A program made the translations under genes and the position numbers. A model generated the notes under the pieces. It worked only from the letters and a program-made list of their open reading frames with translations, made no database searches and had not been told where the DNA came from. DNA of 64,000 nt from Siderastrea radians (taxonomy: Eukaryota > Cnidaria > Anthozoa > Scleractinia > Rhizangiidae), in contig OZ024888.1 in assembly GCA_964017195.1 (NCBI GenBank), forward strand, positions 15,677,701 to 15,741,700. Direction: 5' to 3'. Shown here in pieces: positions 1-64,000 of this stretch. Positions within the stretch are counted from its first letter, which is position 1; every line of letters starts with the position of its first letter.

Positions 1-72
1 TAAGAAATTTGACTAAGTTGCGAGTGGATGCCTTGAACATGCAATGTTAATGAGATTTAATATGGATACTAG

Positions 73-3000
73 GTATCTGCCCTAGGCTTGGACCCATCAG
101 GATCACGGCTTGTAACAGGAGGTTATGATTATGAGGTATACTTGGAGTACCTGTACATAGAGCAGTTTTTAAAGGAGTCTCGTAAAACCTAAATCAAAGT
201 AATTATTGACTAACCAATCACAACAGGAACAAAACACAAAATAAACTAATCAGTAATGGAAGCAAATACAAGTAATTAGTGTTCAGCATGGGAAAATGCA
301 TGCAGGCAAGTCACAGTCAGTTTTGGTTTTATTTTTGATTGGTTGAGAAAGTGGCGTGAGCTTTTTAAACCAATCAGAGAACATTACTACTATTACTTTT
401 GAGACTGATTTGAAAACTGCTCTATTAATAAATTGCTAACTAAACTGTTGACTAATTCTACTCAAACTATCAACAAGTTACAGTCAAATCGGATGTTCTT
501 TTGCCCGCAACTTTGCAAAATTCCACTACAACATTGATGTTTTGTTTGACAGTTTGCTTGGAGCAATTTGCAACTGTCATGAACAACTTGCTTCAGTTGC
601 AATTTTTTATTCTGTCGGTTAAATTGACTCGCTTGTTTCCGCAGCAAAATCCTTTTCAAATTGAATTCCATTCCATGTTCCATGAACCTGTATCTCATTA
701 CGAAATCTTCATAGCATTTCATTAAGTAAAGAAGTTTTTTCAGTAGTCAGGTTTTATGTCATTAAAAATTGTGCTTGTGATATTCTGAGCAAAATTTCTA
801 ATTCTACAAACAGTAAAATAAGACAAGAGAGGAATCTTTACAAACAAACTTGCTACCGGAATAAACAACTTGCAGTTCACAACATCTCTGTTATATCCAC
901 TTTATCACAACAGCCAGCATTGCTAATAACGGCAGAGCAGCTATTGTCCTTTTTTATTCTGAAATATCCTTCAGTGGTAGTCCAAGCCAAATTTTCAATT
1001 TCAAGAGCAATCTGTAGAGGAATCAACAGAATGAAATTTGCGATCCGATGTGAGATAAGATAGATAAGATACATTATTTTGTAAGATAGCTTAAGATAAC
1101 TTTATTGTATCACATCAAGGATATCTCTAATAAAAATCTAGTAACAAAATTATTACAAGTAAAATGCAAACAACTTGGGTATGACATCGGCAAATTGCTT
1201 CAAGCAAACTGTCAATCAAATTACCAATGTTGCCGCAGAAGTTTGCAAAGGCAGTGTTGGAAATAAGCACTCACCCACTCGCCTATGCGAGTATCAGAGG
1301 CGCTGGGCGAGTGCAAATCAGCGATCACTCACCCGTTTGGCGAGTACGAGTTTCAGTTCCATGTAATTATTTATAGTACACTGTTTTTCTACAGTCCATT
1401 TTGGCAAGGAAACAAACTTACCAGTTCTAGTTTAAATATTCTTATCATAGGAGGTGTCCTACAAATTTGGCGCTGAAACACAAGTTCGTTCTTCCTAACT
1501 TCCTTCCAGTAATAATTTACATAATGTGTACAGTTGTACAAAGTGATACTGCTGGTCACTAGCTGAGCTGGTGGTGAGTAATATGTATAGTAAGGGATCT
1601 CACGAAGATTCATCAATATTGAAAACTGTTTAGAAATTGAAAGTGTCTTCATTGTTTTTGTCAATTGGTTTATTAAAAAGGTCTTTTAGTAGAATTTTTC
1701 ATTGAAGCAATAACCGTCAGTGTAACACTTGTCACAGTGTTGTTCGTGAGTGCTGTTGTCTTGAGGTTTTTTTTTTTCCAAAATGAGGAAATATCTCCCC
1801 GGAGTTTTAAGCAGTAAAAATCTAAAGGGTGTAAAAAAAGGTTGGAGAGATGAAGGGTATCTTTTGGGCGAGTGAAGTCTAATCCGGGCGAGTGCATTCT
1901 GAGAGTCACTCACACGAATGGCGAGTGCTCTTAAAATTAAGTTTCCAACACTGAAAGGTGCCCACAAAAGAACATCTTGTTTTGACTGTAAGGTTAAAAA
2001 GAAGAGTTGTACTTGGGCTTCAAGTGTCCTGCATGACAAGCAAAGAAGGAAACGTTGGTACAGAAATGCTGTTTCCCATTTCCTGTTTGTGTACTCTTTC
2101 TGAAGGCAAATTTTGTTTCCACAGTGTTGCAAGGATTCATTTAGAGAAACCTTGAAACAAAATGCTTCAATCTGTGATTGTGTTTCTTTGCTTATGGGGG
2201 CCTGAAGGAAACAATATTCATGAGAGCAAAAACCCAAGCTTGATCTGTCAACCCTCCTGAAGGGAAAAGTCTGATCTGCTAATCACTACACACTTATTCC
2301 TCCACTGCACTAATGCCTTTTATTTTTGCATGGCTTTTACTTTTGTAATGAAACAGGTCAGAGATAATTGCCAACAGTAACAGTGAGCCTTCAGGCTTAC
2401 AAATTTACAACCTATAAAAATCTTCCATGGAATATATCTGGGTGGTTTTCTTTTACATGTTAGGTGAAATTTTGGGATTTCAATGCAATGGATGCATCTC
2501 GTCGGGCCTTTAGGACTCTGCAGCCATTTGAGTGTCACCAGATCAAGTCGATAGATTACAGCATTACTGGAGATGTTGTTCTTATTGCTGCTGGCAATTC
2601 ACAGGTACAGTCAAGCTTTCAAGATCACTCAAGTCTAAAAGACGAAAAAATGCGATATTTTGATCATCTATCGTTTGAAAAATTTAAAATTGACAAACAA
2701 GTAGTATCACATGAAATTACTACTCAACAGCTTTTGTTTGATTGTTGACACTCTTGATTTCATCCACAGACTTAAAAGTTAGAACCACCCTGTACAGTGT
2801 AATAGAGAGCACCACAGGAAAGTATTGCTTAGTAGGTTTTATTTGAATGACCACAATCTATGACTTCATCCACAGACTCAAAAGTTAAAACTACAGTGTA
2901 CCATGTACAATGTAACAAACAGCACCACAGGAAAGTATCACTCAACAGCTTTCATTTGTATGATCATAGAGTCAAAAGTTTGAACCACCTCACCTAACAT

Positions 3001-4986
3001 TGTAAATTACATGGTCATCACAGGAAAATAATGCTCAGTGGCTTTCATCTGAGTTGTCAACCTTTAGATTTTCCACCCATAAAGTTGGAACCAGCTTGCT
3101 AGTACAAGATAATAAACAGTACCATAGGAAAGTACTGCTCAGTAGCTTTCATTACAGGTTTATGAGTACCATCGGCTTTCTTGTCTTGTCCTGTTGAATG
3201 TGCATGTTCAATTTGAGGAGATGACTCCAGCTGCAGCTTTTGAAGGAACATTTCTTTCACCTTAGCTTCTGTGTTTTCCCAGGTTTCTCCTGTCTTAGAT
3301 GTTAGTTATTGTCTTTATTCCTTATTCATATTGTATTATAAATTGTCTATGTTTATTCTAATCTGTATCCTCTGTAAAGCTGAGCTGAGTTAAATAAATT
3401 ATCTTGTCTTGTCTTACATGAGTGATCACACTCTGGGGTTTGGGCCCTGGCTTCAAAAGTCAGAACTGACACTGTGCATTGTTGTAAACAGTACCACAGG
3501 AAGATACAGCTCAACAGCTTTCATTTGAATGGTTATTATTATTTTTTTTTACTCTCAGGCAAAGGTGATTGACAGAGATGGGTTTGAGGTTCTTGAATGT
3601 GTAAAAGGTGACCAGTATATTGTCGACATGACGAACACTAAGGTATGTGATAGCTACTGTGATACATTAGGTTATCTGTCAATTCCAATGTTAATGGAAC
3701 CAAGATCAACACTTACCTAACCTTGGGTTCATAGTCAACCAAGATTCCTGTTTGTCTTGTTTAAAAGTATTTTCACTGCTACTGTAACTTTCAGTTAATA
3801 GTTAGTTTGCAGAGCAACAACCTCCTTTATCAAAATAGCCTTAAAAATAAATTCAAGATCCACACTACATGTACATTGTAATCCTTGGTTAGCTTTGATT
3901 TCAACAACTAGGCCCAGGAAAATATGTGGTAATTTGTTCATCTCAAAGAATTGACTAAAAGTGGCTTCATGTTCCTAGCAGAACATGTGCTTCTTTCAGT
4001 AAAAGTTTTGTCATTTAAATTTGGGAGCCACAATGCATGCATGGTCCTAGCCGAGGGGGGGTACTCCGAGTTTCAAGTGACGGGGATGATCGAATGGGGG
4101 CAAAAATCAATACCCAAAAAAATCCCTAGGGCTTCCAACAAAACCCAAAAAAATCCCTGGACCAAAAATTTACCCCAAAAAGATCCCATGCAGAAATTCC
4201 GAGCCTTGATTTCCAGAAAGGATTAAATGATCTAACACGAAAAAAAACCCACTAGAAATTGAATGTTTGTATTTGGTTATAATTCATCGTACCAGATGAT
4301 TTTATCCTTTCCTTATCTGGTAGTCATTCTAACAACACTTAAGGGACACCCAAGAACATCTTCTGTATCAACAACAACATTATGAATGACAACTCTAAAC
4401 AAAACAAGACCACCTGGGCAAGAACAAGTTTGGTTGTACTTTATTTGCGGAACTACGCGGCCGGGATACATGGGCACTACCATGAATCTTCAGATCATTT
4501 TGAATACCCAAAAAAATCCATACTTAAATCAAGCCACCCAAAAAAATACCTGCCAAATCTTCATACCCAAAAAAATCCCGGAATCGAAAATTTCAAACCC
4601 AAAAAATCCTTCGATCATCCCCGTCACTTGAAGTCCGGAGTACCCCCCCCTGGGGGTCCTAGCAACTGCTCCCAGAGTGTGAAATTCCCCATACTGTGGT
4701 AACTGAAAAATCCTGATAATGACTGCAACAGATTTTGTTTTCAAATTTTATTCTTTGTTTCTTGGAAAAATCGCCAGAAACTACCCTAATAAGGTTGTTC
4801 TTCCTTTGAGAAAATCACTTGATTTCTTTCTCTTAATCTGCTATCTTCGTGTACAAGGAAAGGTATTTAAATTGAATTTCAGCACATTTTTCACCATGTG
4901 AAAATCCTTGTGACAGAACCCCTTTAAGACTTAAAAAAAATGTTAAGTGTTCTTTCATTTATTTATATTGATCTACCTTTTTCATT

Positions 4987-5028
<42 letters not shown>

Positions 5029-8000
5029 TAATAATAATAATAATAATTATAATAATTTATGAATTTGTCTAGCTCATTGTCCCTGACGAAATGATCAAAA
5101 TATTAATGTGCTTTACAATTTATTTGTGAATGCCCAAGCAATCAAAATGTACTGATGGAGGGTTTGCATTTGATCCTTCCAGTGTATATCTGTTATAATA
5201 TTTAAGGACGTTCGCGCCAATTGTTTCTGCGCATCCTTACTGCGCAGGCAATTCACTTCGTGATGTCATGCCACGTCATGTATTGAGCGTGCGTGCTGTT
5301 GAAGAAATGTGGAGATAATTATGTTGCGCTAGTGGGGACTTTAATATCTATGCATGGGTTTAACTCTCTTAAATGTTCAGTGACCCCATATCTTCTTTTG
5401 ATAGATCACTTTCTTTATCGATTATCTACGTTTTGTGAAAAATTAAAGAAAATCTGTATTGTATAAGTTTGATTTTTTTCAACTTTTCTGCCCTCGCATC
5501 ATCGAATTCTACTATTATTGAAGCTGCACGGTGTTCGTTAAAGTCCATCTTAGAGGTTGAGTTTAACCAAAAGGATGACACCGGTTTAAATTATTTACTT
5601 AACAGACCCACTTAAGTAAAATTTGACTAAGAAAGTGGGTCTACAGCGAATCATTTTAAATATTTGTCAACTAACAAGCACTGAGGCCAGGTCGAGTTAC
5701 GAGGGCCGATTTGTCAAAATTGGGGTAGTTTTTGACGCGCTTTATTTCGAAAACGAAGTCGGTGACCCCCCAATTTTTTTCCATTTCTGACATAGGTAAC
5801 TCATTATATGACTGTAGCTAAAGTATGAAAAAAATCTGTATTGTAGAAGTTTTTCGTGCGAGCGTCCTTAATTCTGCGGTACACTGTAGATAGTAAGGGA
5901 TGTCACTTAAGTACAAAATATAAGCAGTGCTGCTTTGTATTTTTCCCAGGGCCATGTTGCCATGCTACACAATGCTTGCTGGAATCCAAAGGTTAAAGAT
6001 GAGTTCATATCTTGCAGTGATGATGGGTATGTTTTGCTCAGGAGTTTTGTACCCTTAAAATCTTGAAAACACATTGTGGTACTCAAATGTTTGATCCAGA
6101 CCTTGGTCATCCAGAACTTTAAGTTCTTCAGGTTTTTCTCGGTGGTCCCATTGGTAAAATTCCTCCAAACCTGTACTTGTCATTTTGATTTTTAAATTGT
6201 CAGATCCATTCAAACTGAAAAGAATAAAAAGAAACAAAACAGGCTAGACCAGTAGACCAACTAAAACAGGAAATCTTTTCAATTGTTGGAAAATTGCTAA
6301 AGCTGATCTACCAGTCTTTGACCTTTGAAGTATCAAGTACAAGGTGCCATTTGGACCCATCTTACTCAAATTTTGAGGATCTGCCCCAAGGAATCTCAGG
6401 CATGCAGGCTACGCATGAAATCCAGTCTCATTTAAACTAGAATTAAATGAAATAAATAGTTATAGTGTTAAGGTTTCGTTTACCATCCTTTTAGTGAGCA
6501 ATTAAATAAGTTGTTGTTTTACTGTTGTTCTTTGTCTACAGGACAGTTAGAATATGGAACACCGAAAATCCCAAGAAAAATAAAACTGTTATTAAAACAA
6601 AAAGCAAACAAGGTATGAGCCACTAAGTTTTAAGAAGAAAGGAGGGCTCGGAATTCCATTCTTACTGGCCATTCTTACTGGTAACCAGGGGATTTTCTCA
6701 TAAACAGAGGCCAAGTTAGGCAAAACAAAAATGGGTTGTGGCTGATTTCAAGGCTTTATGCTCTCCCCTGGCAAAAAGAGAAAAGTAAGTTGAACTGGCC
6801 ATGCCCCCAGCCTTTCAATTGCAGCAGTGGAGCTACAGTACTTAAGGTACAGGTAAGGTTGCACACAAACCAAGAAGGCCCACGTGGCCAGAGCTTATCC
6901 CGGTTTCTGTAGCATGAAGCAACTGAGAGTTTTGCTACTTCTTCCCCCCCCCCCCTCCCGAATTACTTTGTTTACTTTACGTCAGTCTGCACGAGCATTT
7001 ATTCATCTTTGAAGGTTGAATTGCATTGAAATTGTGTATCGTGATTCACATAGGGAAGAAGACGATTCCCACACGATGTTGTTTTTGCAGAGATGGGCGA
7101 ATTATAGCTGCGGGATGCCAAGTAAGCATGCATTTATTTAATAATATGAATACATCATCAATGTAGGTGAGAAAAAATGTAAAAAGACAGTCATCAACAA
7201 GAGGTGATTTTCCTGATGTATCACCATACTTTAGGGACTGACATGAAAATAAAATATGTTAATCTGTAAGGAGAATTAATGTTTTGAGCTTGAGGCGTAA
7301 AGAAATATAAAATGCTTGTTATAAGCTTTGTATCATTCTATGCCATTCGCCTTGAGAGTAGCACGCAAGGTGTTGTGTGACTTTGAAAGCCAAATGCAAG
7401 GATCCAAGTGAACAGTTTCAAGTACTCCTGGCTATTTTCTGTTTCTTTTATAATGGAAAGCCCGCAAAATGTTCTGTAATATTCACACCTGCGTTTAACC
7501 CTTTAAGCCTGAACAGTGATGAAAGTAAAATTTCTCTTTACATCATCACTACTTGTTCAAACATTCAAGTGACGAGAATAAAGAAAGTGATCACCAAGGA
7601 TGAGATGCCTCAATATTTAGTCAAATTCTCCTTCCTGGTTCCATGAGAAATGTGCGGAGATCGAGTAAGGAGAATATGCATTTTTATATCAGGACCTAAA
7701 GGGTTAAAAAAAGATATTCACCAAAACCACTGGCAATAATTCCTTATGATCGGAATAGTAGAAGTAATAATGACAGTGGCTTGGAGTGACTAGAGTACCT
7801 GACGTGCATCCCAGTGTATTTGAACTTAGCAAGATCTTCTACAGTGTATCCATCCGATATTCAACTTCATCTGAGAGATAAGCAATAAAATTGCATAAAC
7901 ATTAGAACAAAGCTTAAACTATGTACAAGACAGTAGTTAAAAATAATATCCATCAATTTTATTGAGCTTTGCTTTGTGAGATTATAATGTTTGATCTTAA

Positions 8001-11000
8001 TTTTAATCTTCACACTGATGATCTCAGTCCTGACATGGGCAATTGATAAAATTGATAATCGATAACATTCTATAACAATCGATAAAATTAGTTGATTGTA
8101 TCGGAAAACGATAAAAATCTATAAACGGATTTGTTGTTTCAATCAGTTTTATCAATTTTATCGAAAATTATCGATTTTATCGGTAACATTTTGTGTCGAA
8201 ATGTGAGCTTTAATAATAACGGCAACCTCTATAACCAGCTCCTATGTCGGGTTAAACAAAAGATTGCCGTTGCTTCCACTCAAAACGTTTTTCTTGGCAG
8301 TTGCTTAGATAGGTAAATAGCCGAGATGTCACTTTCGCAGATGCTTGGGTCGATACAGCACAGTTATCCTGCCAGCTTAATAACCACATTTACTGAAACA
8401 CAAAATACAGTTTTATTCGTGAACAAAGCCACCGCAATCATTTTACCGCGATTAAATGTGTTTTAAATACACAGTCAATGTCAGAAATTAAAGACATGTA
8501 CAATCGACATCCATCGATAAAATCGATAAAATTGATAACAGTAATTTCCAGAAGAGTTGTGAGTATCGATTTATATCGAATGATCGATACAATCGATAAC
8601 GTTCACGTGATTGATATCGATAGTTATCGATTTATCGAACAGTTTTCCGATATCGATGTTTATCGATTGCCCACGTCGGGTCTCAGTGGACAGACTCCTG
8701 TAAACACCCTAGCTATTTGTATCGTGTTCTTTCACAGGATGGTTCCATTCAAGCATGGGATACCAGGAAGCCATTTGTAAGTAAATAAAAGTCTCACTTA
8801 GAAGTTAATTAAGCAATCAATAGTGATTTTGTTTTCAGTCTGTTATTGTTGCCCTTCAAGTGGTTTGAATGATTCACTCAAACTCCTCTCTTGTCTCTGG
8901 TGTTACAAATGGTGATGCATAACCAGTCTACCTCACTGCTTGGTGAAGACTACCAGAAAGCAGTCAAAATGCCGCAATTTATATTTAAAGGGGCTACGTC
9001 ACGTCACGTCACGTCACGTCACAAAGTGTTCCTGTAAAACCATGAGAAAGATATCAAATGAATTTTATCAGGGAGAGCTAACCATAATAATTTTTTTGGT
9101 GATTTTTGAGAACATAGCATCAAAACTTGAAAAAATTGGCCCAATTTTTTCAAGTTGTAATCCATTTCCATCCTTGCCATCGGTAGCAACAGACGACAGG
9201 AAACAGTTTCAGTGCTTTAGAATAGTCTTTATTAACAAAGCTAGACCCGTATTTGTGGAAATCAATTGATGCAAAGACACTTTTTAGCTTTTTAAAAAGA
9301 TACTAAAATAGCGTGACATAGTCCCTTAAAAGTGACCACATCATGAGGCAAACGATAATAGTCTTTAGACATTTGCCATATCCAGTTGCAGATACTTAAC
9401 AGTTACAATGTATTATCAAGGCCGAGGTTTGTGTACCGAGGTCTTGATAATTCTCGTTAACATGTGGAAACCGAATCCAATAACTGTTTTATTATGGACC
9501 TTTTTGAGCATTTGTAAAGACAGTAGTGCGCACAAGAAACTAAACACTCAACAACACATCAACTTGTAAACAACTTTATTTTTAAGCTCACAACCTTTTT
9601 GCTCACCCTAAGAATCTCTAAGGACAGTTTAAAAACCCAGCCTAAAACATAAGTTTTTAAAACTTGAAATTAAACTTGCCATTCTGTTTTGACCACCTGC
9701 TGTGAAAAAGTTCTTTGAATAGCTAACGTAAAAGGGGGTTGCAAAGTTTTTTGCCTGTATAAAGATGCCACTTCTAAATGTATAAAACCTGTTGTCTGTA
9801 AGAATGTCATAATGAAAATAGTGTCTTTAATTTGGCCAATCAAGACTTAGTGACAGCAGTGTATAATAAGTGTATAATAACTATCGTTACTTTCGGAGAG
9901 TCACTGCTTTTGGAACTTGACGGTGTTTTTTCATTTTGCTTTGTTATAGATCCACCCTACATATATTCAGCGCACTGCTCACACATTTGGAAGCGACACC
10001 TCATGTTTGACTTTTTCACACGAGGGAAGCCTACTTGCATCCAGAGGAGGTTAGAACTAATTGCCTGTTACCTGACAATATTGAAATCCATCATCTCTTG
10101 TACATTTTGTCCTACTGTTCATAAGTTATGCATGGGGATTTCTCTCCATTGTTTGAAGAGCTTTGTCCACATGGATTATGTTGTTTTTGGCCATAACTGT
10201 CCTAAAATTGTAAATCAGGGATGACATGACATTCACACAGAAATTTTAGGGCCATTTTAGATGGTACAACTGTTGCTTGTGACTGTCATTATGCAACATT
10301 TGTGGGGGGGGGGATAGGGGGTTTAAACCTTCCGCTTCCCGTACCCCTTAATCCAGGTTCCCACCATGCATTTGTTGGCTCACGCCTCTTTGCATTTTTT
10401 CGATTGTGCAATATTGTACAATGTTGCATAATTTTTCCCTTTTTCTCCCGCTTCCTGCCACCTTGGGAATCCCGCTTCCCACCCCCTCTTCTCCCGCCTC
10501 CCGTACACCTCCCGCCCCCTTTTCTCCCAGTCTTCCGCCCCCCTCTCCCTCTCCACATTTGTGTCATGTACAAATTAAAACAACCCTCATCATTTAACAT
10601 TGCTGTGGCAACAACTGTTGTAGGGTTTTAAAACATGTTTCAAAATCCTCACCTTTTTCTTGTCACGCACGATAATTCCAACCAAGTTTCATTTTTGATT
10701 TATTTGAAACAGTTTGTGTTGTAGGCTTTTCATAAGCATGAAACCTGTGATAAAGTTGTTCCTTTAATTGTACCTCAGCCCTTAGACATATTAATGGCTC
10801 ACATCTTATTGTCACTCTCACTCTCAAGTACAAACGTTTATGACAAAGGATGAGATCATTGTAGTGCCTCATTAGCTAATTTTTACTCCTCCTGTTCTTG
10901 TTTTTAGTTTCTCTTTTGCGTTCTAAGACTTGAAGATGCTGTCAGATTGATCCATAAAAAGAGCTGAACCTTTGTGTTTATCTTGCATCGTCTTAACTTT

Positions 11001-17000: not shown

Positions 17001-18308
17001 GCTACCTACTAAGGAGCCTTTTCACAGGTAGCCCACTAAGGAAACTGTTCACAGGTTGCCCACTTAGGAGCCTGTTCACAGACTACGGGCAATAAATTGT
17101 TAAAAGCTAGAGGACATCTTAGCTACGTACGTAAAGTGCGTTAGAGACATTCTATTGATTGAAAAAGATATTAAAAGCAATCAAAGTAGTTGTCGATATC
17201 TTTCTTCTCAGAGGTACACATTTCAGCCAACTTCTGCCAGTATTTCTGCTTATGTTCAAAGCAAGTACTCAGAGACCACAAAGAGACCATGTGGTGCGCA
17301 ACAAACCACTTTGGTGAGAATAATATCAGTCAGTCACCTTGCCGGCTCAGAAAAATGATGTACATTTCTTTAAGGCAGAAAAAAGGATTATTACTGTGTT
17401 AATAGGCAGTTTAAGCTTGGTGAACCACTCGTAGCTTCAAGATAATACTTTTCCTTTTTTTTTTTAAATAAAACAAAAAAAATTACATCTATTTTAATTT
17501 TGTTTTACAGCTCATTCACTGCCAATGTTCCGGGAGAAGCGCTATAAAAGTAAAAAGAAGGTGAAGGAAGCAGACCGAAAAGATCCCGTTAAATCTCACA
17601 GACCTGAATTGCCGGTCACTGGACCAGGTATGTGTATATAAACAGGAATTTATCATCTGTACTGGATTAAAGCTCGATCCCCAATTTCAGATTTTAACTC
17701 ATCAAACACGAGAGAACGTGTTTCGTTAGGTTTTTCAACACCGAGAAGAGAGTTGAAAAAACGACGGACAAAGGGGTTTTTTGTGGAGATAATTATATCA
17801 AACACTCTCTCCGAGTGTTTGACACCTGAACTTCTCCAACAAGGCAGTAAATAACTGAGAATCGAAGGAACAAAATTCAGCAAATAACTGGGAAATGAAG
17901 GAACAAAATTCTTAAAATCTGTGCTAATTAAATCAGTGCTAATTAAAAGTCTGTGCTAATTAGAGGTTGGTTTCAACCTCTCACGCTTATGATTTTCTTT
18001 GTTTAAACTTGGCGAATTATTAGCGATTTTAAGAAAATCATATCCTATATCAATAGGCCTTTTATTGTTTATTGTTCATTCTTTGTGTGTTATTTACTTA
18101 TTTATTTATTCTTCAATGTCATTTCGAATTTATTGTCTTTATTAGGTAGTTAGTTTACAGAGCTCCATTTAAACCAGCCCATGCTGAACTGGGCATCTCT
18201 GTCTAAATATTGTCAATAAATAAATATAAAAACGTTCGCTAACTCAGTTGTTTCCTTGCTCATATAGTGGATAGGCTATTTCGTCCTTTCATCTATCGCT
18301 CCAGAGGC

Positions 18309-18345
<37 letters not shown>

Positions 18346-18474
18346 GGCTATCTGTCTTTGTCTGTCTGTCCGTCTGACTATCTGTCTTTGTCTGTCTGTC
18401 TGTGTGTCTGTCTGTCTGTCTGGATATCTGTCTGTCTGTCTGTCCTTGTCTTTTTGGCTATTTATCTTTGTCCT

Positions 18475-18517
<43 letters not shown>

Positions 18518-19209: not shown

Positions 19210-19241
<32 letters not shown>

Positions 19242-19258
19242 GTGTCTGTGTGTCTGTG

Positions 19259-19289
<31 letters not shown>

Positions 19290-20914: not shown

Positions 20915-20932
20915 TCCATTCCAGTGGAAACC

Positions 20933-21235: not shown

Positions 21236-21239
21236 GTGT

Positions 21240-23545: not shown

Positions 23546-23586
<41 letters not shown>

Positions 23587-24814: not shown

Positions 24815-51289
<26,475 letters not shown>

Positions 51290-52757: not shown

Positions 52758-52869
52758 ACCGCCATATTGGATGTTTATAAATGATATTGTCTTCAAAATG
52801 TTTACAGATTAACCATTTTTAAGCCTTTCTTCTGCGAATAAATTTGTTTTCAAGCGGGAAGAAGGGAAA
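52758..52869 (+). promoter_or_regulatory. Putative promoter of the orphan exon
   Basis: GCCATATTGG (52761-52770) is a YY1-type motif in reverse orientation, about 100 bp before ATG 52870. No TATA box. Confidence 0.3.
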
Positions 52870-53080
52870 ATGGAAGGCGAAGAAGCCCCTGTGCATTTTA
52901 ACTGCTTTGTACACTACCCAGGCTTTACCGAAGAAGGGATTGAAGTTCAAACGGTCGCACGGGGGGATGGCATTGAACTACATCCTGGCACACAACTTTC
53001 GAGTCTCGCAGCGAGTGTCCTGAGCGAAATGTTTCAAAAGCAAGAAATAGACGGGAAAGTAATTAAAAGTAAAAGTGAAA
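52870..53080 (+). CDS. Orphan first coding exon of an unrecognised gene
   Basis: ATG 52870 opens 70 codons plus one base (MEGEEAPVHFNCFVHYPGF at the start) and ends at a consensus GAAA|GTAAGT donor at 53081, in phase 1. About 100 bases upstream is a YY1-like GCCATATTGG motif (52761-52770), as also seen before WDR70. I do not recognise the protein. No continuing exon is visible between 53081 and the WDR70 start at 54709, where a decayed LINE fragment and a TAGG repeat lie instead. Either the gene continues beyond a rearrangement point, or this is a chance ORF. Confidence 0.42.
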
Positions 53081-53826
53081 GTAAGTAAACAATTTCGTAT
53101 GGGAACCCGTGAAATGAAATTTCAAATTTCATAGGAATTGTGCAAACACGGGTAAAATAGGTAAATTTTTATGCGTAAGATTTCATTTTGTGAAATTTGA
53201 AATTTATTTTCTCGGGCTTCCATAAGAAATTGTCTTTGGGGTTATTACAGATAACAAATTACATCCATAGCTCTCAAAAAATGTAAAAAAGAATGCGATA
53301 TGCTTTAAATTATTCTGGTACAAGATTTTTGTCCACTGAAAATTAAAATTACTCAATGTCCTAATGGATTCCGTCTTAATCCTTTTTTAACCCTGCGATT
53401 ATTTTCTACAATGCGCGCACTTTTTCGTCAGTGACAAAAAGGAAACAGCCAGTGATGGACACGGCTTAATCGTGGACTAACAAATGCAAGTGAATTAGCT
53501 TACTCGCTTTTTATTATTTTTATAACACCGTGATAAGGTGAGGATCTCTTTTCTTGGTTGAAATGTGACTTCCTTCGATAAAACTTTCGTCGATAAAATC
53601 GGGGGACGGATACACGGTACCACGTGATGTGTTTCGCCTGGTGAGAGCCGGATATGATTAATTGATGGATTATAACACACGTTACTTCGGTGTCTGGCTT
53701 AAATAACGTTTTATACTGCGAGCAGTCTCTTTCTTCTCCCTTTTCTTTCTTTCTTTCTTTTCTTGCGCGGATGGGTCGCGTGTAAATCGAAGCACGACGT
53801 GCGAGCGGCGAAGCCGCGAGTCACGC

Positions 53827-53901
53827 GTAGGTAGGTAGGTAGGTAGGTAGGTAGGTAGGTAGGTAGGTAGGTAGGTAGGTAGGTAGGTAGGTAGGTAGGT
53901 A
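53827..53901. repeat. TAGG tetranucleotide microsatellite
   Basis: About 19 almost perfect TAGG units next to the reverse-transcriptase fragment. On the minus strand it reads as PTYL repeats, which is an artefact. Confidence 0.97.
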
Positions 53902-53904
53902 GCT

Positions 53905-54335
53905 AACTGTGTTATCCCTGCTAACCTCTAGTTTTCCCCTGGGGTTTTCTCGTATCTTGGCCCAACGCCTCCTCAGACGCTTGACCGTAACCAACAAAGC
54001 TTTGGTTTTTTCATCGTATTTATATGCATTTTGTTTTCTCTGAGCCCATCTCTCTACCTCTCTCTGTTCCTGTGACAAAGTGTGATTTAGCGTTGGAATG
54101 ATCTTCCAGTTCGAGCTTGAAGACAAGGTGGTATCGTCTGCATAGATGTCCAAGGTTGACCTGCGAACGTGGAGAGGCATGTCGTTCACGAACAAAAGGA
54201 AAAAGCCACGGGTCCTAAGATTGTCCCTTAGGGCACACCTGTCTGAGGAAAATAGGAGGAAAGCTCGCAGTGTTTCTATGCGCCTCGCCTCCTCTCAGAT
54301 GAGAAGCCAACACCAAGGTTAAAGGTAAAGGGCAA
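53905..54335 (-). pseudogene. Decayed LINE reverse-transcriptase fragment
   Basis: The minus strand reads FVNDMPLHVRR and DIYADDTTLSSSSNW, the catalytic YADD box of non-LTR retrotransposon reverse transcriptases, with an open stretch from 54195 downward. Just upstream (54195-54240) the conserved GVPQGTILGP block can be read but has a stop in place of Gln and a frameshift before LFVND. The order of motifs fits a Jockey/CR1/L2-type element. The rest of the element is missing. It ends against the tetranucleotide repeat at 53827. Confidence 0.8.
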
Positions 54336-54599
54336 ATAATAGCTCTACAACCTCCCTGGTAGTACCGTTTACATCTCCCGCGTGCTGTGTAACTCGCTCA
54401 ACAATTTTTGATGGAAAAGAGGGACTGTTCGGTGACGTGAAGGCAAGCAGGCGAAGCTGTCAAAAAAAATTGACTTAAAAAAATCTGTCTCAGGGGTTTG
54501 AAATGATTGAAAGAAAAAAAAATCAAACAAACAAACAAGAAACAAGGAAACAAAGCAAAAGCCTCGCCAGCGAGCAGTGACATTCATGCATGTTCAGCG

Positions 54600-54708
54600 G
54601 ACCAACGCGTAGAGTATGCGTTAACGAATGTCCAATATGGCGGATTGAACGAAGACTTCACGTTTTCAAAAGTTTAACCTCTCTTGAACCCGCTTTTAAC
54701 TTAGCACG
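54600..54708 (+). promoter_or_regulatory. Putative WDR70 promoter / 5' UTR
   Basis: AATATGGCGG at 54634-54643 matches the YY1 motif and lies 66 bp before the WDR70 ATG, the usual place for YY1 in TATA-less housekeeping promoters. Confidence 0.4.
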
Positions 54709-57700
54709 ATGGACGAAGAGGATCTAGAAGAAATGAGAGCGCTTAGAGGTAAAAATTTTATTGATGTTTTGATGTATTTTTTTGCATTTGCGGTTCAAAA
54801 CAAGTGTTCAAGCGAGAAGTCAAAACGAGAAGTCAAGAGTTTCAATCTTATTTCAAGCTTCCTTTTTTAATTTATTTTTGTTTTATAGCGTCCTCAGGAT
54901 ACAGCCAGGCTCAATCGCAGGTTCACTCTTTCCGACCAGCTCGGAGTCGACAGAGTGAAACAATCACCCGTACTTCTGGGGAACCAACTAAAGATATGCC
55001 GACCGCTTTAAGTTCTTCAGCTCAAAACAGAGGTGAGCTTATGAACTGAACTGAACAACTTTATTGATGTGTATTGATGTGTATCAATTTGTTTATTAAT
55101 GCGTATTAATGTGTATGTGTATATACGTGCGGTACCCATGTTTTATAAACAGTAGAATGCGTATAAAATGTGAACGTGGCTAAACTACAGAGTCAAGGGC
55201 CACTTTTAGTAATTAAAATGGGATAGCAAACGACCAGGCTTGTTTGCTTGGTTGATAACAGACTGTCGTGAGAATTGACAAGATTTCAAACCCGGTTTGG
55301 TCTTAGAGTGGCTTGAGAGTGGCGTGTTCTCTCGGTGACTCTTGTGTACTCTGTACACTAAAAACACGACTCATTACATTTGGCAATGTACACTTTATTG
55401 AGATGTACTAACATAACTTGGATATATCACATTGTTAGCAAACTGACAGTCCACATTTGCAAACTGACATACAACACGTTAGGGAACTGATATTATTAAT
55501 GTTAGCAAATTGGACATTAGCGAAACACCTCATAGGCAAAACACCCGACTACCTTTACTCTTTTAAAGTTTGATTCTGCTCAAATCTTTATTAGAATAGA
55601 TGAATATTCAAACTCTTGCTCATATTGCACGATCTTATCTTGCCATAACACATTGAAAGCTTGGTAATAAAACTCAATTGTACTTATAGTTGTTCAATTA
55701 AGTTCGATTAAGTTCTGTCATCAAGTGAAGTCGAGCTCAGAAAAAAATTGTGAATCAAACAAAACTGAACATTTGAATACATTTGGTTGCAAAAGGAAGT
55801 TGAATGCACCAAATATATTGTGGATTGAAAAAAGTGGAATGTTCAGTTTTCCAACACTTTTTGATGAATGTGTTACAAGTGGGTGGGTGCTGCATTTATC
55901 TTTGGTTCGAAAGGTGTTGCTGCACACCTGAGCTTTAAATGGTGAAGGATAGAGAAATAACTCAGTGACAACTCAGTGTCTCATTAACAATAAAGTTAGG
56001 TTAAAATACACGCAAGTCAAGGCATGCCTCTCCTCTCTCATATGGGTGTGGGTGATAACAAGAAAAAAATAAACAGTAACTCAAACAAGCTCTTGGTTTC
56101 TTGTCAAAGTGGACTTTTCTTCAAAAGTGTCATTTGTCATATTTTACAAACAACGTAGTGTTAATTAGCATTTCGTATCTCTTGTAAATGGTTCTTGAAG
56201 CTGAAATTTACATAGTACCATAGAAGGTTTGATTTGCTGGCTTCATTCCATGACATACAGTACAGTACAAGTACATGTATATGTACGTGTACGTTGTCTC
56301 TCACCTGCGCTTTAATGGCATTGAACAGTTTCATCTGATCCTCTTGCTAAACAAATTGACAATCAATTAATCTCAGAGAGTCACCACTTGGCAAGTCAAC
56401 TTCTTTGTATAACCAGCCACAGCTTTAGATCCCATTTTTATTCCATTTACTATTATTAATGTGCTTGTGTCATTAGATGCAGGTGAAACCAGAACAGAAA
56501 ATGAGTCCATGGAGGTCATGATGGGTTTTTCAGGTTTTGGTAAGTGTGTAGTTCCCTCTTAAGTGACAACAAGACAAAGTTAGTTGTAAGCACCAACTCT
56601 GGGTTTCTGTTGAATTTTCAAGTTTTCTTGAAGAAATCGTGGAAAGTGCAGCCAAGAGGAGGTATTAAAGTTGTGCAAGTTTGATTGCACTGAATAGCTG
56701 CTAGGTTGTAATAGAAACATTGCATTTCTGGTAATAAGGTTATTAAAAGAGTCCAAATTTACCATCTTGAATGAGAATTCTTTATAAAGGCTAGAATAAG
56801 CAAGTGCCATACATGTGTATATTTACCAATGAAAAATAATATTGTGCAGTTGCAGGAAATATCCTTACCCACCCCAAGGCAGGTTATTGGAAGTTCCAAG
56901 GGGAGGAGGGTCCCAAAAGCCTAAATTTTTTAAAGAAAGTGTGAAGCTAAACTGGAATTTCCAGGGGGGTATGGGGGGGGGGAGTCAGGCTAAGTAAACT
57001 TCTGTGCAGGTATTGATATTTCGGGAACATCGTCATCTGTGGTGGAACCCTGGGTTATGACGAGCAGAAAATATTAACAACCTCGTCATGGTGACCACTT
57101 TTTCGTGGCTCAAATGAAAGCTTAGTCATTCTGTTGCTCGAAAGTGCTTGAAAACCTTGTTATGTACCAAATAGATCCCATTATCTGATAGTGCACACAT
57201 GAGATCAAAACATGGTAAGAACAAAGTAGTATGCTACAAGCTGCAGGGAAATAGTGCGAGTGATGCTCTTACCACTCTTTGACGTCCTCTGTATGTTATC
57301 AGAGGACATGTACACCCACATGGCCAAATGAAATCTAATTGTTTTATACAGACCTTGATCAAAACACATGTTTTACATTGTCCATTGTGTAAAGTTTAGT
57401 AGCTGCTAGGTTCTAATTAAATGATTTCCTCTAAACAGGACACGTTGTGTTTGTCCCTGACACTATTTTTCCCTTTACTAGTGCGTCATTTGGGACATAG
57501 TTAATAATTGTACTTTGCATGATTTCATGAACAGGAAAAAAGGCAGCCAAGCAGTTTAATGTTGAAGACATGTTTGAGAAAGCAAAACGAACAGCAATGG
57601 AGCTATCAAGTAGCAGAAACAAAGGTACTGAGTGGGCTGGAATCCAGAACAAATTTTTGTTTTATAAGTGACTGTGCTTACCTACAACTGTTTATCATTT

Positions 57701-60012
57701 ATTAAGGCACTTAATCTCTAAGGTTGCTAGTTAGCACATATTTAGTAGTTTTGCTATAAGATTTTAGGATAAATGGTTCAGTATTTTACATTCATTCAGA
57801 CCACGGTCCACCTACACTGTACAAATAATATTGACTCAGGAGAGATAAAAACCTACATCTATAGAGCTGACTTAACAAGCATCAGTCATTTGATCATAGC
57901 TTAGTTTTGTTGTTATCTTGTACCCAGCTATTTTGAACAATAGTTCATTTGGCATCTATTGGATTACTGTAAGAGCTGGCTTCATGTATAAACTGATAAC
58001 ATATAATTTTATATAGCCATCAACTGCCTGTCCTGAAACAAAAACCTGTCTTAATTTTTATAATGGTTACCACATGTTTGGAGTTTTTGTTTTGGTAATA
58101 GTTTCAATTCCTCAACAGGAAAGATTCACCTCATGTTGAAGTTGCTAAAATCTTTGCAAGAATGTTAAAACTTTCATTAATATTGATTTGTTTCTTATAG
58201 AATCTTCTGCGGATTATGATGACGATGAGTCTGCCCCATTTGTTATCATGCCTCCATCTTTTAGCGGCAATAAGGTAAACCTGTGCATTGGGATTCTAAC
58301 TTTTGAGTCTGTGGATGAAATCCTACAGTATGATCATTCAAGTAAATACTGTTTAGCAGTGCTTTTTTTGTTCTTTGTTATTTCTGTTATAGTTTCCACC
58401 TGCCTCAAATAGCCCAAGCTAATTTGTGGGTGGAACCACAAATTTGTATTGTAACCAGTTGTTGTTGTAATAAAATTGTTGTTCTTGTATAAAAATTGTT
58501 GTTGTTGCTTTCCTGTGGTGCTGTTCATTATGTCGCACAAAGTGGTCTCACTTTTTGAGTCTGTGGATCAAATCCCAATGAAAGTTGCTGAGCAGTACTT
58601 TCCTGTGGTGCTGTTTATTGTTCTGCACAAGGTGGTTCTAACTTTTGGGTCTGTGAATCCAATCCTGAAGTGTGACCATTCAAATCAAAGCTACTGAGCA
58701 GTACTTTCCTGTGGTGCTGTTTATTTTGTTGTACAAGGTGGTTCTAACTATAGAGGCTGTGGATCAAATCCTGAAGTGTGACCATTCAAATCAAAGCTAC
58801 TGAGCAGTACTTTCCTGTGGTGCTGTTTATTTTGTTGTACAAGGTGGTTCTAACTATAGAGTCTGTGGATCAAATCCTGAAGTGTGACCATTCAAATCAA
58901 AGCTACTGAGCAGTACTTTCCTGTGGTGCTGTTTATTTTGTTGTACAAGGTGGTTCTAACTATAGAGTCTGTGGATCACATCCTGAAGTGTGACCATTCA
59001 AATCAAAGCTGCTGAGCAGTACTTTTCTGTGCTGCTGTTTATTGTACTGCACATGGCAGTTCTAACTTTTGAGTCTGTGGATCAAATCCTGTTCAAAGTG
59101 TGACCATTCAAATGGAAGCTGTTGAGCAGTAATTTCCTATGTGTTCTGTTTATTTTGCTGTTAATGGAAGTTACATCTTTTGTGGTGTTTGGTGGTGGAA
59201 ACCTGAACTGTGACCATTCAAATGAATTCTGAGGAATAAGAGAATCATGAATAAGGGAACTTTGAATAACTAAAAACCTGTCATATTTTATTTTTTACTT
59301 GTGATGTTCAATTTTTAAGGCTTTTCAAAACAAATGGAATGCCTGGGTTTCTTTTGTTTACCTACTCCATGTATAACCATGTGGATTTTCCTTTTGAAGC
59401 CAGTTTTTACACAACTGTACTTGTTTTTCTACAGCGGGCATCCTTTACATTATTTCATGGGATAACAATCGTGCATTACTCCAGTTTTTCACTTTCAGCT
59501 GGGATAATTATGAGGAATTCATTTTCTTAGTTGAGTAACAGAGTTAAATTTATTTACAGACAACTGATAGCAACAAAAAGGAAAGGGATGATAGTAATGA
59601 TGATGACAACGTTGATGATGACGAAGACAAAGAGGTAAACAAAATAATATTCTAGTATAATTATTATAGATGTAATTTACCATGTGTCCATTTTGCTTTT
59701 CGTAACTGAAACATAATTACAGTAGTAAGACCAAGCTCCACTAATACATACATTAGTGGAGCTAATGTATACTATAATTTATTGGAACTTTGAATAATAT
59801 TGCTACATGACTGTACATGACTGTATGTTCAGAAAAGTGTAATGACTTTTTTCTTTTAGTTTTTGAAAATTTATGTGTGTACATGTACATGTATAGGGTA
59901 TATAATTATGCTATTGTTTGCATGATAATTTGCATCCTGTTTTGTTTGTTAGAGTATAGAGAGCCGGATTCCAGTGAGTCATGAAATCTCCTTAGACCAC
60001 GGCAACAAAACA
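54709..60012 (+). CDS. WDR70: WDR70, exons 1-7 (residues 1-182), N-terminal region
   Basis: Exons: 54709-54748, 54889-55032, 56477-56539, 57535-57624, 58201-58274, 59560-59634, 59953-60012. ATG 54709 opens MDEEDLEEMRALR. Residues 77-83 are MGFSGFG followed by KKAAKQFNVEDMFEKAKRTA, the family's conserved N-terminal block. Exons 5-6 encode an acidic, low-complexity linker (DYDDDES, DDDNVDDDEDKE), and exon 7 encodes RIPVSHEISLDHGNKT just before the propeller. Introns 1-4 are all phase 1; introns 5-7 are phase 0. Exon 7 must end at 60012 using a GTTGAG donor, because only then does exon 8 (GTA TCT GCC) restore KTVSALGLDPSG. The N-terminus before MGFSGFG is about 50 residues longer than human and serine-rich, so the first two exons are the least certain. 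This block runs into the second copy of exon 8 at 60630. Confidence 0.92.
55033..56476. other. WDR70 intron 2
   Basis: AT-rich intron. Just after the donor, GAACTGAACTGAACAACTTTATT (55045-55067) looks like a short minus-strand retroelement tail. Nothing else recognised. Confidence 0.45.
56846..57030. mobile_element. Worn TGTGCAGTTCC-end MITE
   Basis: Left end TGTGCAGTTGCAGGAAATAT; the right end GATATTTCGGGAAC is degraded. The interior AAGCTAAACTGGAATTTC is shared with 60343-60530. WDR70 intron 3. Confidence 0.65.
57169..57341. mobile_element. Foldback MITE, worn copy of 15384-15567
   Basis: GATCAAAACATGGTAAGAAC, TCTTACCACTCTTTGACGTC and ACATGGCCAAATGAAATCTA match the arms of the other copy. 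WDR70 intron 3. Confidence 0.65.
58286..59230 (+). repeat. 106-bp satellite array
   Basis: GGTTCTAACTATAGAGTCTG, TGGATCAAATCCTGAAGTGT, GACCATTCAAATCAAAGCTA and CTTTCCTGTGGTGCTGTTTA recur; GTTCTAAC begins at 58635, 58741, 58847 and 58953, exactly 106 apart. The central units are nearly identical, the outer ones diverged. It lies in WDR70 intron 5, in the opposite orientation to the units in intron 9. Confidence 0.95.
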
Positions 60013-60342
60013 GTTGAGTAACTTTCCTGATTACATGTAGAATTTATTATAAATTATGTTCTTATATTGCATTTTTTAAAATTTAAGAAGTATTTGAAAG
60101 GAAGTAACTGAAATAATTATGCCCAGCTGCTGAAAGTGGCAATTTCATAAATTTGTTTTGCTCATAGTGTATCATTTTCCAATTTTTTTAAATTCTTCAA
60201 TTGATAAGGATTTTCATTAATGAAAAAAGAAAAACAAAAGACAAACCAAACCAAATGGTGCAGCACTTCTCTGAAGGCAAAACAGTGGAGAAAGGGGGAG
60301 TTGTAGGTTGGTTGAGAAATAGTTCTCATCCATGAAATGGAA

Positions 60343-60530
60343 TATGTAGTTCCAGAAAAAATCCATACCCACTCCATGGAAGGTCAATGAAGATTCCTAG
60401 GGGGAGTGGGGTTTTAAAAGTCAAAATTTTAGAAGCAAAGTATAAAGCTAAACTGGAATTTCTTGTGGGGGAGAGGGGTGCAAAACAAAAACCTTCCAGG
60501 GGGGGTATGGATATTTTCTAGAACTGCACA
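60343..60530. mobile_element. TGTGCAGTTCC-end MITE
   Basis: Ends TATGTAGTTCCAGAAAAAAT and ATATTTTCTAGAACTGCACA are inverted; CCATACCC near the left mirrors GGGTATGG at the right. It sits 27 bp before the start of the repeated 3443-bp segment, in WDR70 intron 7. Confidence 0.78.
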
Positions 60531-60557
60531 ATATCCTAAAAAAGCAAAAAAAATTAT

Positions 60558-63500
60558 TAAGAAATTTGACTAAGTTGCGAGTGGATGCCTTGAACATGCA
60601 ATGTTAATGAGATTTAATATGGATACTAGGTATCTGCCCTAGGCTTGGACCCATCAGGATCACGGCTTGTAACAGGAGGTTATGATTATGAGGTATACTT
60701 GGAGTACCTGTACATAGAGCAGTTTTTAAAGGAGTCTCGTAAAACCTAAATCAAAGTAATTATTGACTAACCAATCACAACAGGAACAAAACACAAAATA
60801 AACTAATCAGTAATGGAAGCAAATACAAGTAATTAGTGTTCAGCATGGGAAAATGCATGCAGGCAAGTCACAGTCAGTTTTGGTTTTATTTTTGATTGGT
60901 TGAGAAAGTGGCGTGAGCTTTTTAAACCAATCAGAGAACATTACTACTATTACTTTTGAGACTGATTTGAAAACTGCTCTATTAATAAATTGCTAACTAA
61001 ACTGTTGACTAATTCTACTCAAACTATCAACAAGTTACAGTCAAATCGGATGTTCTTTTGCCCGCAACTTTGCAAAATTCCACTACAACATTGATGTTTT
61101 GTTTGACAGTTTGCTTGGAGCAATTTGCAACTGTCATGAACAACTTGCTTCAGTTGCAATTTTTTATTCTGTCGGTTAAATTGACTCGCTTGTTTCCGCA
61201 GCAAAATCCTTTTCAAATTGAATTCCATTCCATGTTCCATGAACCTGTATCTCATTACGAAATCTTCATAGCATTTCATTAAGTAAAGAAGTTTTTTCAG
61301 TAGTCAGGTTTTATGTCATTAAAAATTGTGCTTGTGATATTCTGAGCAAAATTTCTAATTCTACAAACAGTAAAATAAGACAAGAGAGGAATCTTTACAA
61401 ACAAACTTGCTACCGGAATAAACAACTTGCAGTTCACAACATCTCTGTTATATCCACTTTATCACAACAGCCAGCATTGCTAATAACGGCAGAGCAGCTA
61501 TTGTCCTTTTTTATTCTGAAATATCCTTCAGTGGTAGTCCAAGCCAAATTTTCAATTTCAAGAGCAATCTGTAGAGGAATCAACAGAATGAAATTTGCGA
61601 TCCGATGTGAGATAAGATAGATAAGATACATTATTTTGTAAGATAGCTTAAGATAACTTTATTGTATCACATCAAGGATATCTCTAATAAAAATCTAGTA
61701 ACAAAATTATTACAAGTAAAATGCAAACAACTTGGGTATGACATCGGCAAATTGCTTCAAGCAAACTGTCAATCAAATTACCAATGTTGCCGCAGAAGTT
61801 TGCAAAGGCAGTGTTGGAAATAAGCACTCACCCACTCGCCTATGCGAGTATCAGAGGCGCTGGGCGAGTGCAAATCAGCGATCACTCACCCGTTTGGCGA
61901 GTACGAGTTTCAGTTCCATGTAATTATTTATAGTACACTGTTTTTCTACAGTCCATTTTGGCAAGGAAACAAACTTACCAGTTCTAGTTTAAATATTCTT
62001 ATCATAGGAGGTGTCCTACAAATTTGGCGCTGAAACACAAGTTCGTTCTTCCTAACTTCCTTCCAGTAATAATTTACATAATGTGTACAGTTGTACAAAG
62101 TGATACTGCTGGTCACTAGCTGAGCTGGTGGTGAGTAATATGTATAGTAAGGGATCTCACGAAGATTCATCAATATTGAAAACTGTTTAGAAATTGAAAG
62201 TGTCTTCATTGTTTTTGTCAATTGGTTTATTAAAAAGGTCTTTTAGTAGAATTTTTCATTGAAGCAATAACCGTCAGTGTAACACTTGTCACAGTGTTGT
62301 TCGTGAGTGCTGTTGTCTTGAGGTTTTTTTTTTTCCAAAATGAGGAAATATCTCCCCGGAGTTTTAAGCAGTAAAAATCTAAAGGGTGTAAAAAAAGGTT
62401 GGAGAGATGAAGGGTATCTTTTGGGCGAGTGAAGTCTAATCCGGGCGAGTGCATTCTGAGAGTCACTCACACGAATGGCGAGTGCTCTTAAAATTAAGTT
62501 TCCAACACTGAAAGGTGCCCACAAAAGAACATCTTGTTTTGACTGTAAGGTTAAAAAGAAGAGTTGTACTTGGGCTTCAAGTGTCCTGCATGACAAGCAA
62601 AGAAGGAAACGTTGGTACAGAAATGCTGTTTCCCATTTCCTGTTTGTGTACTCTTTCTGAAGGCAAATTTTGTTTCCACAGTGTTGCAAGGATTCATTTA
62701 GAGAAACCTTGAAACAAAATGCTTCAATCTGTGATTGTGTTTCTTTGCTTATGGGGGCCTGAAGGAAACAATATTCATGAGAGCAAAAACCCAAGCTTGA
62801 TCTGTCAACCCTCCTGAAGGGAAAAGTCTGATCTGCTAATCACTACACACTTATTCCTCCACTGCACTAATGCCTTTTATTTTTGCATGGCTTTTACTTT
62901 TGTAATGAAACAGGTCAGAGATAATTGCCAACAGTAACAGTGAGCCTTCAGGCTTACAAATTTACAACCTATAAAAATCTTCCATGGAATATATCTGGGT
63001 GGTTTTCTTTTACATGTTAGGTGAAATTTTGGGATTTCAATGCAATGGATGCATCTCGTCGGGCCTTTAGGACTCTGCAGCCATTTGAGTGTCACCAGAT
63101 CAAGTCGATAGATTACAGCATTACTGGAGATGTTGTTCTTATTGCTGCTGGCAATTCACAGGTACAGTCAAGCTTTCAAGATCACTCAAGTCTAAAAGAC
63201 GAAAAAATGCGATATTTTGATCATCTATCGTTTGAAAAATTTAAAATTGACAAACAAGTAGTATCACATGAAATTACTACTCAACAGCTTTTGTTTGATT
63301 GTTGACACTCTTGATTTCATCCACAGACTTAAAAGTTAGAACCACCCTGTACAGTGTAATAGAGAGCACCACAGGAAAGTATTGCTTAGTAGGTTTTATT
63401 TGAATGACCACAATCTATGACTTCATCCACAGACTCAAAAGTTAAAACTACAGTGTACCATGTACAATGTAACAAACAGCACCACAGGAAAGTATCACTC

Positions 63501-64000
63501 AACAGCTTTCATTTGTATGATCATAGAGTCAAAAGTTTGAACCACCTCACCTAACATTGTAAATTACATGGTCATCACAGGAAAATAATGCTCAGTGGCT
63601 TTCATCTGAGTTGTCAACCTTTAGATTTTCCACCCATAAAGTTGGAACCAGCTTGCTAGTACAAGATAATAAACAGTACCATAGGAAAGTACTGCTCAGT
63701 AGCTTTCATTACAGGTTTATGAGTACCATCGGCTTTCTTGTCTTGTCCTGTTGAATGTGCATGTTCAATTTGAGGAGATGACTCCAGCTGCAGCTTTTGA
63801 AGGAACATTTCTTTCACCTTAGCTTCTGTGTTTTCCCAGGTTTCTCCTGTCTTAGATGTTAGTTATTGTCTTTATTCCTTATTCATATTGTATTATAAAT
63901 TGTCTATGTTTATTCTAATCTGTATCCTCTGTAAAGCTGAGCTGAGTTAAATAAATTATCTTGTCTTGTCTTACATGAGTGATCACACTCTGGGGTTTGG
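60558..64000 (+). repeat. Direct repeat, second copy (identical to 1-3443)
   Basis: Second occurrence of the first 3443 bases. It carries the same elements at shifted positions: MITE at 60714-60982, inverted-repeat element at about 61061-61809, hAT-like element at 61809-62510, and satellite units at about 63307-63722. Unlike the first copy, it is preceded by WDR70 exons 1-7. Confidence 0.97.
60630..63161 (+). CDS. WDR70: WDR70, exons 8-9, second copy
   Basis: Exon 8 is 60630-60692 and exon 9 is 63021-63161. They appear identical to 73-135 and 2464-2604, shifted by 60557 bases. In reading order they directly follow exon 7 (60012) in phase 0, so this copy, not the one at the window start, is physically joined to the N-terminal exons here. 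The gene runs off the window after exon 9; exon 10 would be expected at about 64116. Exon 9 encodes the VKFWDF blade motif and ends at AAGNSQ. Confidence 0.93.

What the first reader, a model, noticed from the sequence alone, without database searches (positions are those of the whole stretch)
1..64000. Window repeats with a 60,557-bp period: circular contig, extrachromosomal circle or fresh tandem duplication
Bases 60558-64000 match 1-3443 with no difference found, including MITEs and intronic DNA that would drift quickly. Old duplications or haplotype copies in outbred marine animals would be expected to differ. Zero difference points to one molecule read twice (a circular contig of 60,557 bp that was wrapped) or a very recent head-to-tail copy. 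A circular animal contig with a complete p110 gene would itself be notable, because kinase genes on extrachromosomal circles are known from tumours.
Basis: partly seen in the sequence, partly recalled or inferred. Interest (0 to 1): 0.85.

Follow-up and report, generated by a model that had tools for sequence, protein, structure and literature searches.

The report
Looped 60.6-kb coral chromosome piece
A 60.6-kilobase piece of a stony coral chromosome with two whole genes and the start of a third is read as a closed loop, most likely because it is repeated head to tail, though a free DNA circle or an assembly error cannot be ruled out.

Summary
The repeat is exact: 60,558-64,000 equals 1-3,443 at 3,443 of 3,443 bases. 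The DNA is from a stony coral. It holds a complete PI3K class IA catalytic gene (p110; 24,815-51,289) and a complete WDR70 gene that crosses the repeat seam inside intron 7. So the seam is an arbitrary cut, and blind end-joining of a linear contig is excluded. Because p110 lies both after and before WDR70, the assembled sequence is circular or head-to-tail. A third, dve-1-like homeobox gene starts at 52,870, but only its first exon is present; residues 71-293 of the Acropora protein are absent (0 of 223, against 119-223 in 27 control stretches). The derived joint is therefore most likely at about 53,080-54,625, joining dve intron 1 to DNA upstream of WDR70; inferred native order WDR70, p110, dve. 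I favour a recent head-to-tail duplication collapsed into one circular contig over an extrachromosomal circle or a false join. Reads, depth and contig records could not be seen, so the cause stays open, and tumour-like amplification could not be tested.

The parts
1..3443 (.). First reading of the exactly repeated stretch (period 60,557)
   Evidence: 3,443 of 3,443 bases identical to 60,558-64,000
60558..64000 (.). Second reading of the same stretch, cut by the window end
54709..60012 (+). WDR70 exons 1-7 (5' part of the gene): 54709-54748, 54889-55032, 56477-56539, 57535-57624, 58201-58274, 59560-59634, 59953-60012
   Evidence: tblastn with Porites evermanni P0028 and JGI P0026; spliced model
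60013..60557 (+). WDR70 intron 7, left part; continues at 1-72 across the seam (617 bp in all)
   Evidence: GT donor after 60012, AG acceptor before 60630 = 73
73..20914 (+). WDR70 exons 8-24 (3' part of the gene), stop codon at 20912-20914
   Evidence: intron 9 donor after 2604 read
24815..51289 (+). PI3K class IA catalytic subunit p110 (beta/delta-like), 19 exons, 1,039 aa, no stop inside
   Evidence: Pfam PI3K_p85B, PI3K_rbd, PI3K_C2; homologues; spliced model, 925 of 1,039 columns identical to Porites lobata P0001
52870..53079 (+). First coding exon of a dve-1/SATB-like CUTL-homeobox gene, followed by a GTAAGT donor; the rest of the gene was not found in the unit
   Evidence: P0146, 83% identity over 92% of the query part, E 3.5e-26; 76% over 72 residues by tblastn; residues 71-293 not found
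53080..54625 (.). Inferred interval of the derived joint (dve intron 1 joined to DNA upstream of WDR70); contains a (GTAG)19 run at 53827-53902 and a degenerate reverse-transcriptase fragment on the - strand at 53824-54294
   Evidence: inference from the cut dve gene; tandem repeat; RVT_1 E 0.018, below the curated cut-off

Best explanation
The window is one 60,557-bp circular contig (or the inside of a head-to-tail array) read 1.06 times. It is a cut-out of a stony coral chromosome that natively runs WDR70, p110, dve-like gene on one strand. One derived joint, inside dve intron 1, connects back to the DNA just upstream of WDR70. Most likely this is a recent head-to-tail duplication (fixed, polymorphic or a short array) whose near-identical units were collapsed by a long-read assembler into a self-looping, circular contig; each unit then carries complete WDR70 and p110 genes, so the effect would be an extra dose of both, with a dve promoter and first exon placed before WDR70. 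Shown: exact repeat, gene content, gene continuity over the seam, no trace of the rest of dve. Inferred: position of the joint, native order, long reads, duplication as the cause, dose effect.
For: Exact period. WDR70 exons 1-7 lie before the seam and exons 8-24 after it, in order, on one strand, with a GT-AG intron across the seam; the JGI protein P0026, from a 2,963-bp contig that leaves no room for these introns, has the same residues joined and is 592 of 598 residues identical. p110 intact with 17 GT-AG and 1 GC-AG introns. p110 follows WDR70 and also precedes it, which a linear unduplicated locus cannot do. dve exon 1 is present, residues 71-293 are not: 0 of 223 residues at E 1e-3, while 27 stretches of 223 residues of p110 and WDR70 from Acropora and Nematostella gave 119-223 each. 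Linkage elsewhere: p110 and WDR70 list the same longest-contig length in Nematostella (20,793,841) and in Oculina patagonica (38,537,115), and the dve cluster P0146 (41 member sequences) lists the same length (23,669,023) as Acropora palmata WDR70 P0034. Corals are rich in tandem gene copies, almost a third of predicted genes in two species (PMC10236652, abstract passage).
Against: No reads, depth, contig name or circular flag could be seen: the genome search did not complete (11 tries). The tandem genes of PMC10236652 are described as often poorly conserved and their amplified families as mostly immune-related, not fresh 60-kb blocks. The lone dve exon could be a relic, or WDR70 could be nested in a dve intron, which would move the joint to 20.9-24.8 kb. 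The dve test rests on one relative, P0146.
Confidence: 0.5

Rival explanations
1. A real extrachromosomal circle cut from the chromosome between dve intron 1 and the region upstream of WDR70, carrying complete p110 and WDR70.
For: The closed sequence has two whole genes and, by inference, one derived joint, as an excised circle would. Circles with whole genes exist in healthy human tissue, and more than 1,000 breakpoint pairs over 25 kb apart were reported there (PMC5852086, passages).
Against: In that study 99% of circles were under 25 kb, so 60 kb is large, and a circle would have to be abundant to be assembled (inference). No depth data. No report in cnidarians was found in the held library: eccDNA with cnidarian 0 papers; extrachromosomal circular DNA with coral 28 papers, of which 15 were listed and none is about corals by its title.
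Confidence: 0.18
2. A false join: chimeric or amplified reads, or a repeat in the 1.6-kb interval, made the assembler close a normal chromosomal segment into a ring.
For: The joint interval holds a reverse-transcriptase fragment and a (GTAG)19 run, the kind of DNA that draws false overlaps (general knowledge).
Against: From the end of dve exon 1 to the WDR70 start codon is only 1,629 bp, which one long read would span; the long microsatellites, such as the 250-bp CAGT array, suggest long reads (inference). Whether reads were amplified is unknown.
Confidence: 0.27
3. dve exon 1 is a native relic, or a first exon with WDR70 nested behind it, so that the derived joint lies instead between WDR70 and p110 (20,915-24,814). 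This changes the place of the joint, not the choice between duplication, circle and false join.
For: Gene order in other corals could not be read here.
Against: The exon is an open frame with a good donor and 76-83% identity to Acropora, unlike a decayed relic; same-strand nesting of a 27-kb gene would be unusual (general knowledge).
Confidence: 0.2

Closest known systems
Recent tandem (head-to-tail) segmental duplication or copy-number variant in corals
   Same: Head-to-tail reading of a unit with whole genes; tandem gene copies are very common in corals (PMC10236652, passages)
   Different: Unit of 60 kb with two conserved housekeeping-type genes and no divergence seen; whether it lies in a chromosome is not shown
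Extrachromosomal circular DNA (eccDNA/ecDNA)
   Same: Closed sequence of chromosomal origin with complete genes, one of them a PI3K catalytic subunit
   Different: No circularity assay, depth or junction reads; no tumour context; longer than 99% of circles in healthy human tissue (PMC5852086, passages)
Circular contigs from long-read assemblers
   Same: Length under the window size, sequence read over the seam, arbitrary cut inside an intron
   Different: Usually bacterial, organellar or viral (recalled); here nuclear animal DNA

Membership tests
Tandem duplication | Unit present at least twice, head to tail | tested here: inconclusive
   3,443 bases are seen twice in the window, but a wrapped circular contig gives the same
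Tandem duplication | Lies in a chromosome with unique flanks on both sides | not testable with these tools
   genome search did not complete (11 tries); the window shows no flank
Tandem duplication | One derived joint next to otherwise native gene order | tested here: inconclusive
   dve-like gene cut after exon 1; native order not read
Extrachromosomal circular DNA | Sequence closes on itself | tested here: met
   WDR70 continuous over the seam; also true of a tandem array
Extrachromosomal circular DNA | Resistant to exonuclease, or raised depth over flanks | not testable with these tools
   no reads held
PI3K class IA p110 | p85-binding, Ras-binding and C2 domains; kinase motifs DLRQD, GDRHSDN, HIDFGH | tested here: met
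   PI3K_p85B, PI3K_rbd, PI3K_C2 by Pfam; DLRQD and HIDFG found by pattern, GDRHSDN seen in the exon and in the model; full-length homologues carry PF00454 and PF00613
WDR70 | Full-length match to WDR70 orthologues | tested here: met
   592 of 598 to P0026 and 558 of 646 to Porites evermanni P0028; one exon matches PDB WDR70 at E 1.2e-16
dve-1/SATB-like homeobox gene | CUTL and homeodomain region | tested here: not met
   only the first exon is in the unit; the part of P0146 with CUTL and homeodomain was not found. The exon is the start of such a gene, not a whole one

The most novel reading that the evidence does not exclude
A genuine, abundant extrachromosomal circle in a stony coral carrying intact PI3K p110 and WDR70, with the promoter and first exon of a dve-like homeobox gene set in front of WDR70, possibly raising PI3K dose in some tissue or colony.
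Probability: 0.15. Interest if true: 0.75.

Novelty: new member of a known kind. Interest (0 to 1): 0.32.

Why it matters
If the loop is real DNA it raises the dose of a growth-signalling kinase and a second conserved gene as one block, and gives a single 1.6-kb interval that can be tested by PCR in coral colonies. If it is a circle it would be a gene-bearing animal circle outside vertebrate tumours. If it is an assembly error it warns that a circular contig from a coral sample need not be a plasmid or virus.

Tried and rejected
Allelic copies: rejected, 0 differences where 39-79 are expected. Linear contig wrapped blindly: rejected, both ends fall in one WDR70 intron in the right order. Phage, plasmid or viral origin: 23,001 of 64,000 bases (40,000-63,000) had no match in the phage and plasmid records, the seam 42-mer had none in IMG/VR, p110 (as Porites lobata P0001) none there or in the prokaryote genomes (31 stretches matched a pattern, none encoded a relative); these tools warn that records of the window's own genome may be left out. 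No tRNA and no Rfam match at the gathering score. Organelle origin: not tested; the genes are nuclear and intron-rich. Papers: coral, growth anomalies and PI3K together, 0; false circular contigs: 97 papers with at least 4 of 5 terms, 15 listed, 81 with 10 listed, 1; only listings and abstract starts seen, nothing on this point among them. Region 20.9-24.8 kb was read and its frames of 45 residues or more listed; no further gene was recognised by eye, but these frames were not searched.

Weak spots: the WDR70 model used a GC donor for intron 9 because the scan stopped short of the right one; the GT at 2605 was read, so the printed protein lacks five residues. The acidic stretch of WDR70 is shorter than in P0026. 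The RVT_1 match is below Pfam's cut-off. P0146 was the only hit among 61 candidates, and the dve exon had no Pfam or PDB match. The output was cut in the middle, so its lax-threshold list was seen in part; one search gave the count. The tree branch grouping the window with Porites and Acroporidae is not starred.

Full report
Bases 60,558-64,000 equal 1-3,443 at all 3,443 positions, and the offset 60,557 dominates the repeated 31-mers. The match reaches the window's last base, so its end is not seen. Two alleles of one coral would differ at about 39-79 of these positions at the heterozygosity given for two corals (PMC10236652, passages). Zero differences therefore mean either one sequence read twice or a very recent copy, and sequence alone cannot part these.

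The DNA is nuclear DNA of a stony coral. The best named relatives are Porites lobata for p110 (925 of 1,039 aligned columns identical) and Porites evermanni for WDR70 (558 of 646). A tree of 16 WDR70 rows pairs the window with the JGI protein P0026 (100/99) inside a group that also holds the Porites pair and the Montipora-Acropora trio (94/92, not starred), outside both of these. The species is not known.

The p110 gene is complete: 19 exons from 24,815 to 51,289, 18 introns of which 17 are modelled GT-AG and one GC-AG, no stop inside, 1,039 residues. It has the p85-binding, Ras-binding and C2 domains and the kinase motifs. Its first exon scores best against beta and then delta forms among solved structures.

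The key result is WDR70. Its 24 exons run 54,709-60,012 and then 73-20,914, all on the + strand and in order. The seam at 60,557/1 falls inside its intron 7, which has a GT donor after 60,012 and an AG acceptor before 73. The JGI protein P0026, from a contig of only 2,963 bp, has the same residues joined and is 592 of 598 residues identical. So the seam is an arbitrary cut through an intact gene. A linear contig wrapped by mistake would not give this. And because p110 then lies 3.9 kb after WDR70 and also 3.4 kb before it, the assembled sequence cannot be an ordinary single-copy locus.

Where, then, is the unnatural joint? Between p110 and WDR70 there is an open frame whose coding part, 52,870-53,079, is followed by a GTAAGT donor. 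Its only match among 61 candidates is a protein named homeobox protein dve-1 in Acropora cervicornis (P0146, 293 residues, 83% identity over 92% of the query part, E 3.5e-26). P0146 carries a CUTL domain just above Pfam's cut-off and a homeodomain match below it. Residues 71-293 of P0146 have no match in the unit at E 1e-3: 0 of 223. The same test on 27 stretches of 223 residues of p110 and WDR70 from Acropora and Nematostella recovered 119-223 residues each. At a lax threshold the best match of that part in the output shown was about 21 bits, against 112 for the exon. The dve-like gene is thus cut after its first exon, as far as one relative can show. WDR70's own upstream DNA seems to begin again by about 54,630: the Acropora palmata record P0034 translates a similar stretch (PIWRI) before its start (seen by eye). 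The joint most likely lies in the 1.5 kb between. That interval holds a (GTAG)19 run and a decayed reverse-transcriptase fragment.

Other species fit a native order of WDR70, p110, dve-like gene. Equal lengths are read here as the same contig; this suggests the chromosome, not the neighbourhood, and the order itself was not read anywhere.

Cause. A collapsed head-to-tail duplication, a free circle and a false join all give this sequence. I favour the duplication (0.5) because tandem copies are very common in corals (PMC10236652, abstract passage: almost a third of predicted genes in two species) and because a free circle would have to be abundant to be assembled; in healthy human tissue 99% of circles were under 25 kb, although more than 1,000 breakpoint pairs over 25 kb apart were also found (PMC5852086, passages). 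Against the duplication, the coral paper calls its tandem genes often poorly conserved and the amplified families mostly immune-related. A false join (0.27) is possible, but the interval is short enough for one long read. I could not see reads, depth, the contig name or any genome: the genome search failed 11 times. The tumour comparison in the finding has no support here beyond the presence of p110; searches for papers on PI3K in coral growth anomalies and on eccDNA in cnidarians gave none in the held library.

Verdict: a confirmed observation, a partly right interpretation, now with a precise anatomy and one testable joint interval. Interest is modest unless reads show a true circle.

Noticed in passing
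window 52759-52771 and 54631-54643: The 13-mer CCGCCATATTGGA stands upstream of dve exon 1 and, in reverse complement, upstream of WDR70 exon 1; the core ATGGCGG/CCGCCAT occurs 4 times in the unit. It resembles a YY1-type promoter element (recalled).
   Followed up: partly
window 53824-54294 (-): Decayed reverse-transcriptase fragment (FVND and YADD motifs by eye; RVT_1 E 0.018) beside a perfect (GTAG)19 run.
   Followed up: partly
window 58577-59161 and 2756-2966: A 106-bp unit repeated 5.5 times in a WDR70 intron, with related inverted copies at about 2,756-2,966 and 43,590-43,680 and a direct one at 31,374-31,452.
   Followed up: no
window 26375-26689 (+), 28280-28648 (-): Frames with the peptides VVPENIHTPP and VVPENIHTLP, perhaps a coral mobile element (recalled).
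   Followed up: no
window 5356-5887 and 14117-14648: About 530 bp repeated 8,760 bp apart inside WDR70 introns, pieces 80-94% identical.
   Followed up: no
P0026 (JGI, 2,963-bp contig): WDR70 protein 592 of 598 residues identical to the window's: a JGI data set seems to hold the same or a sister coral species.
   Followed up: partly
window 47110-48878: The one p110 intron modelled as GC-AG; a short unfound exon there is also possible.
   Followed up: no
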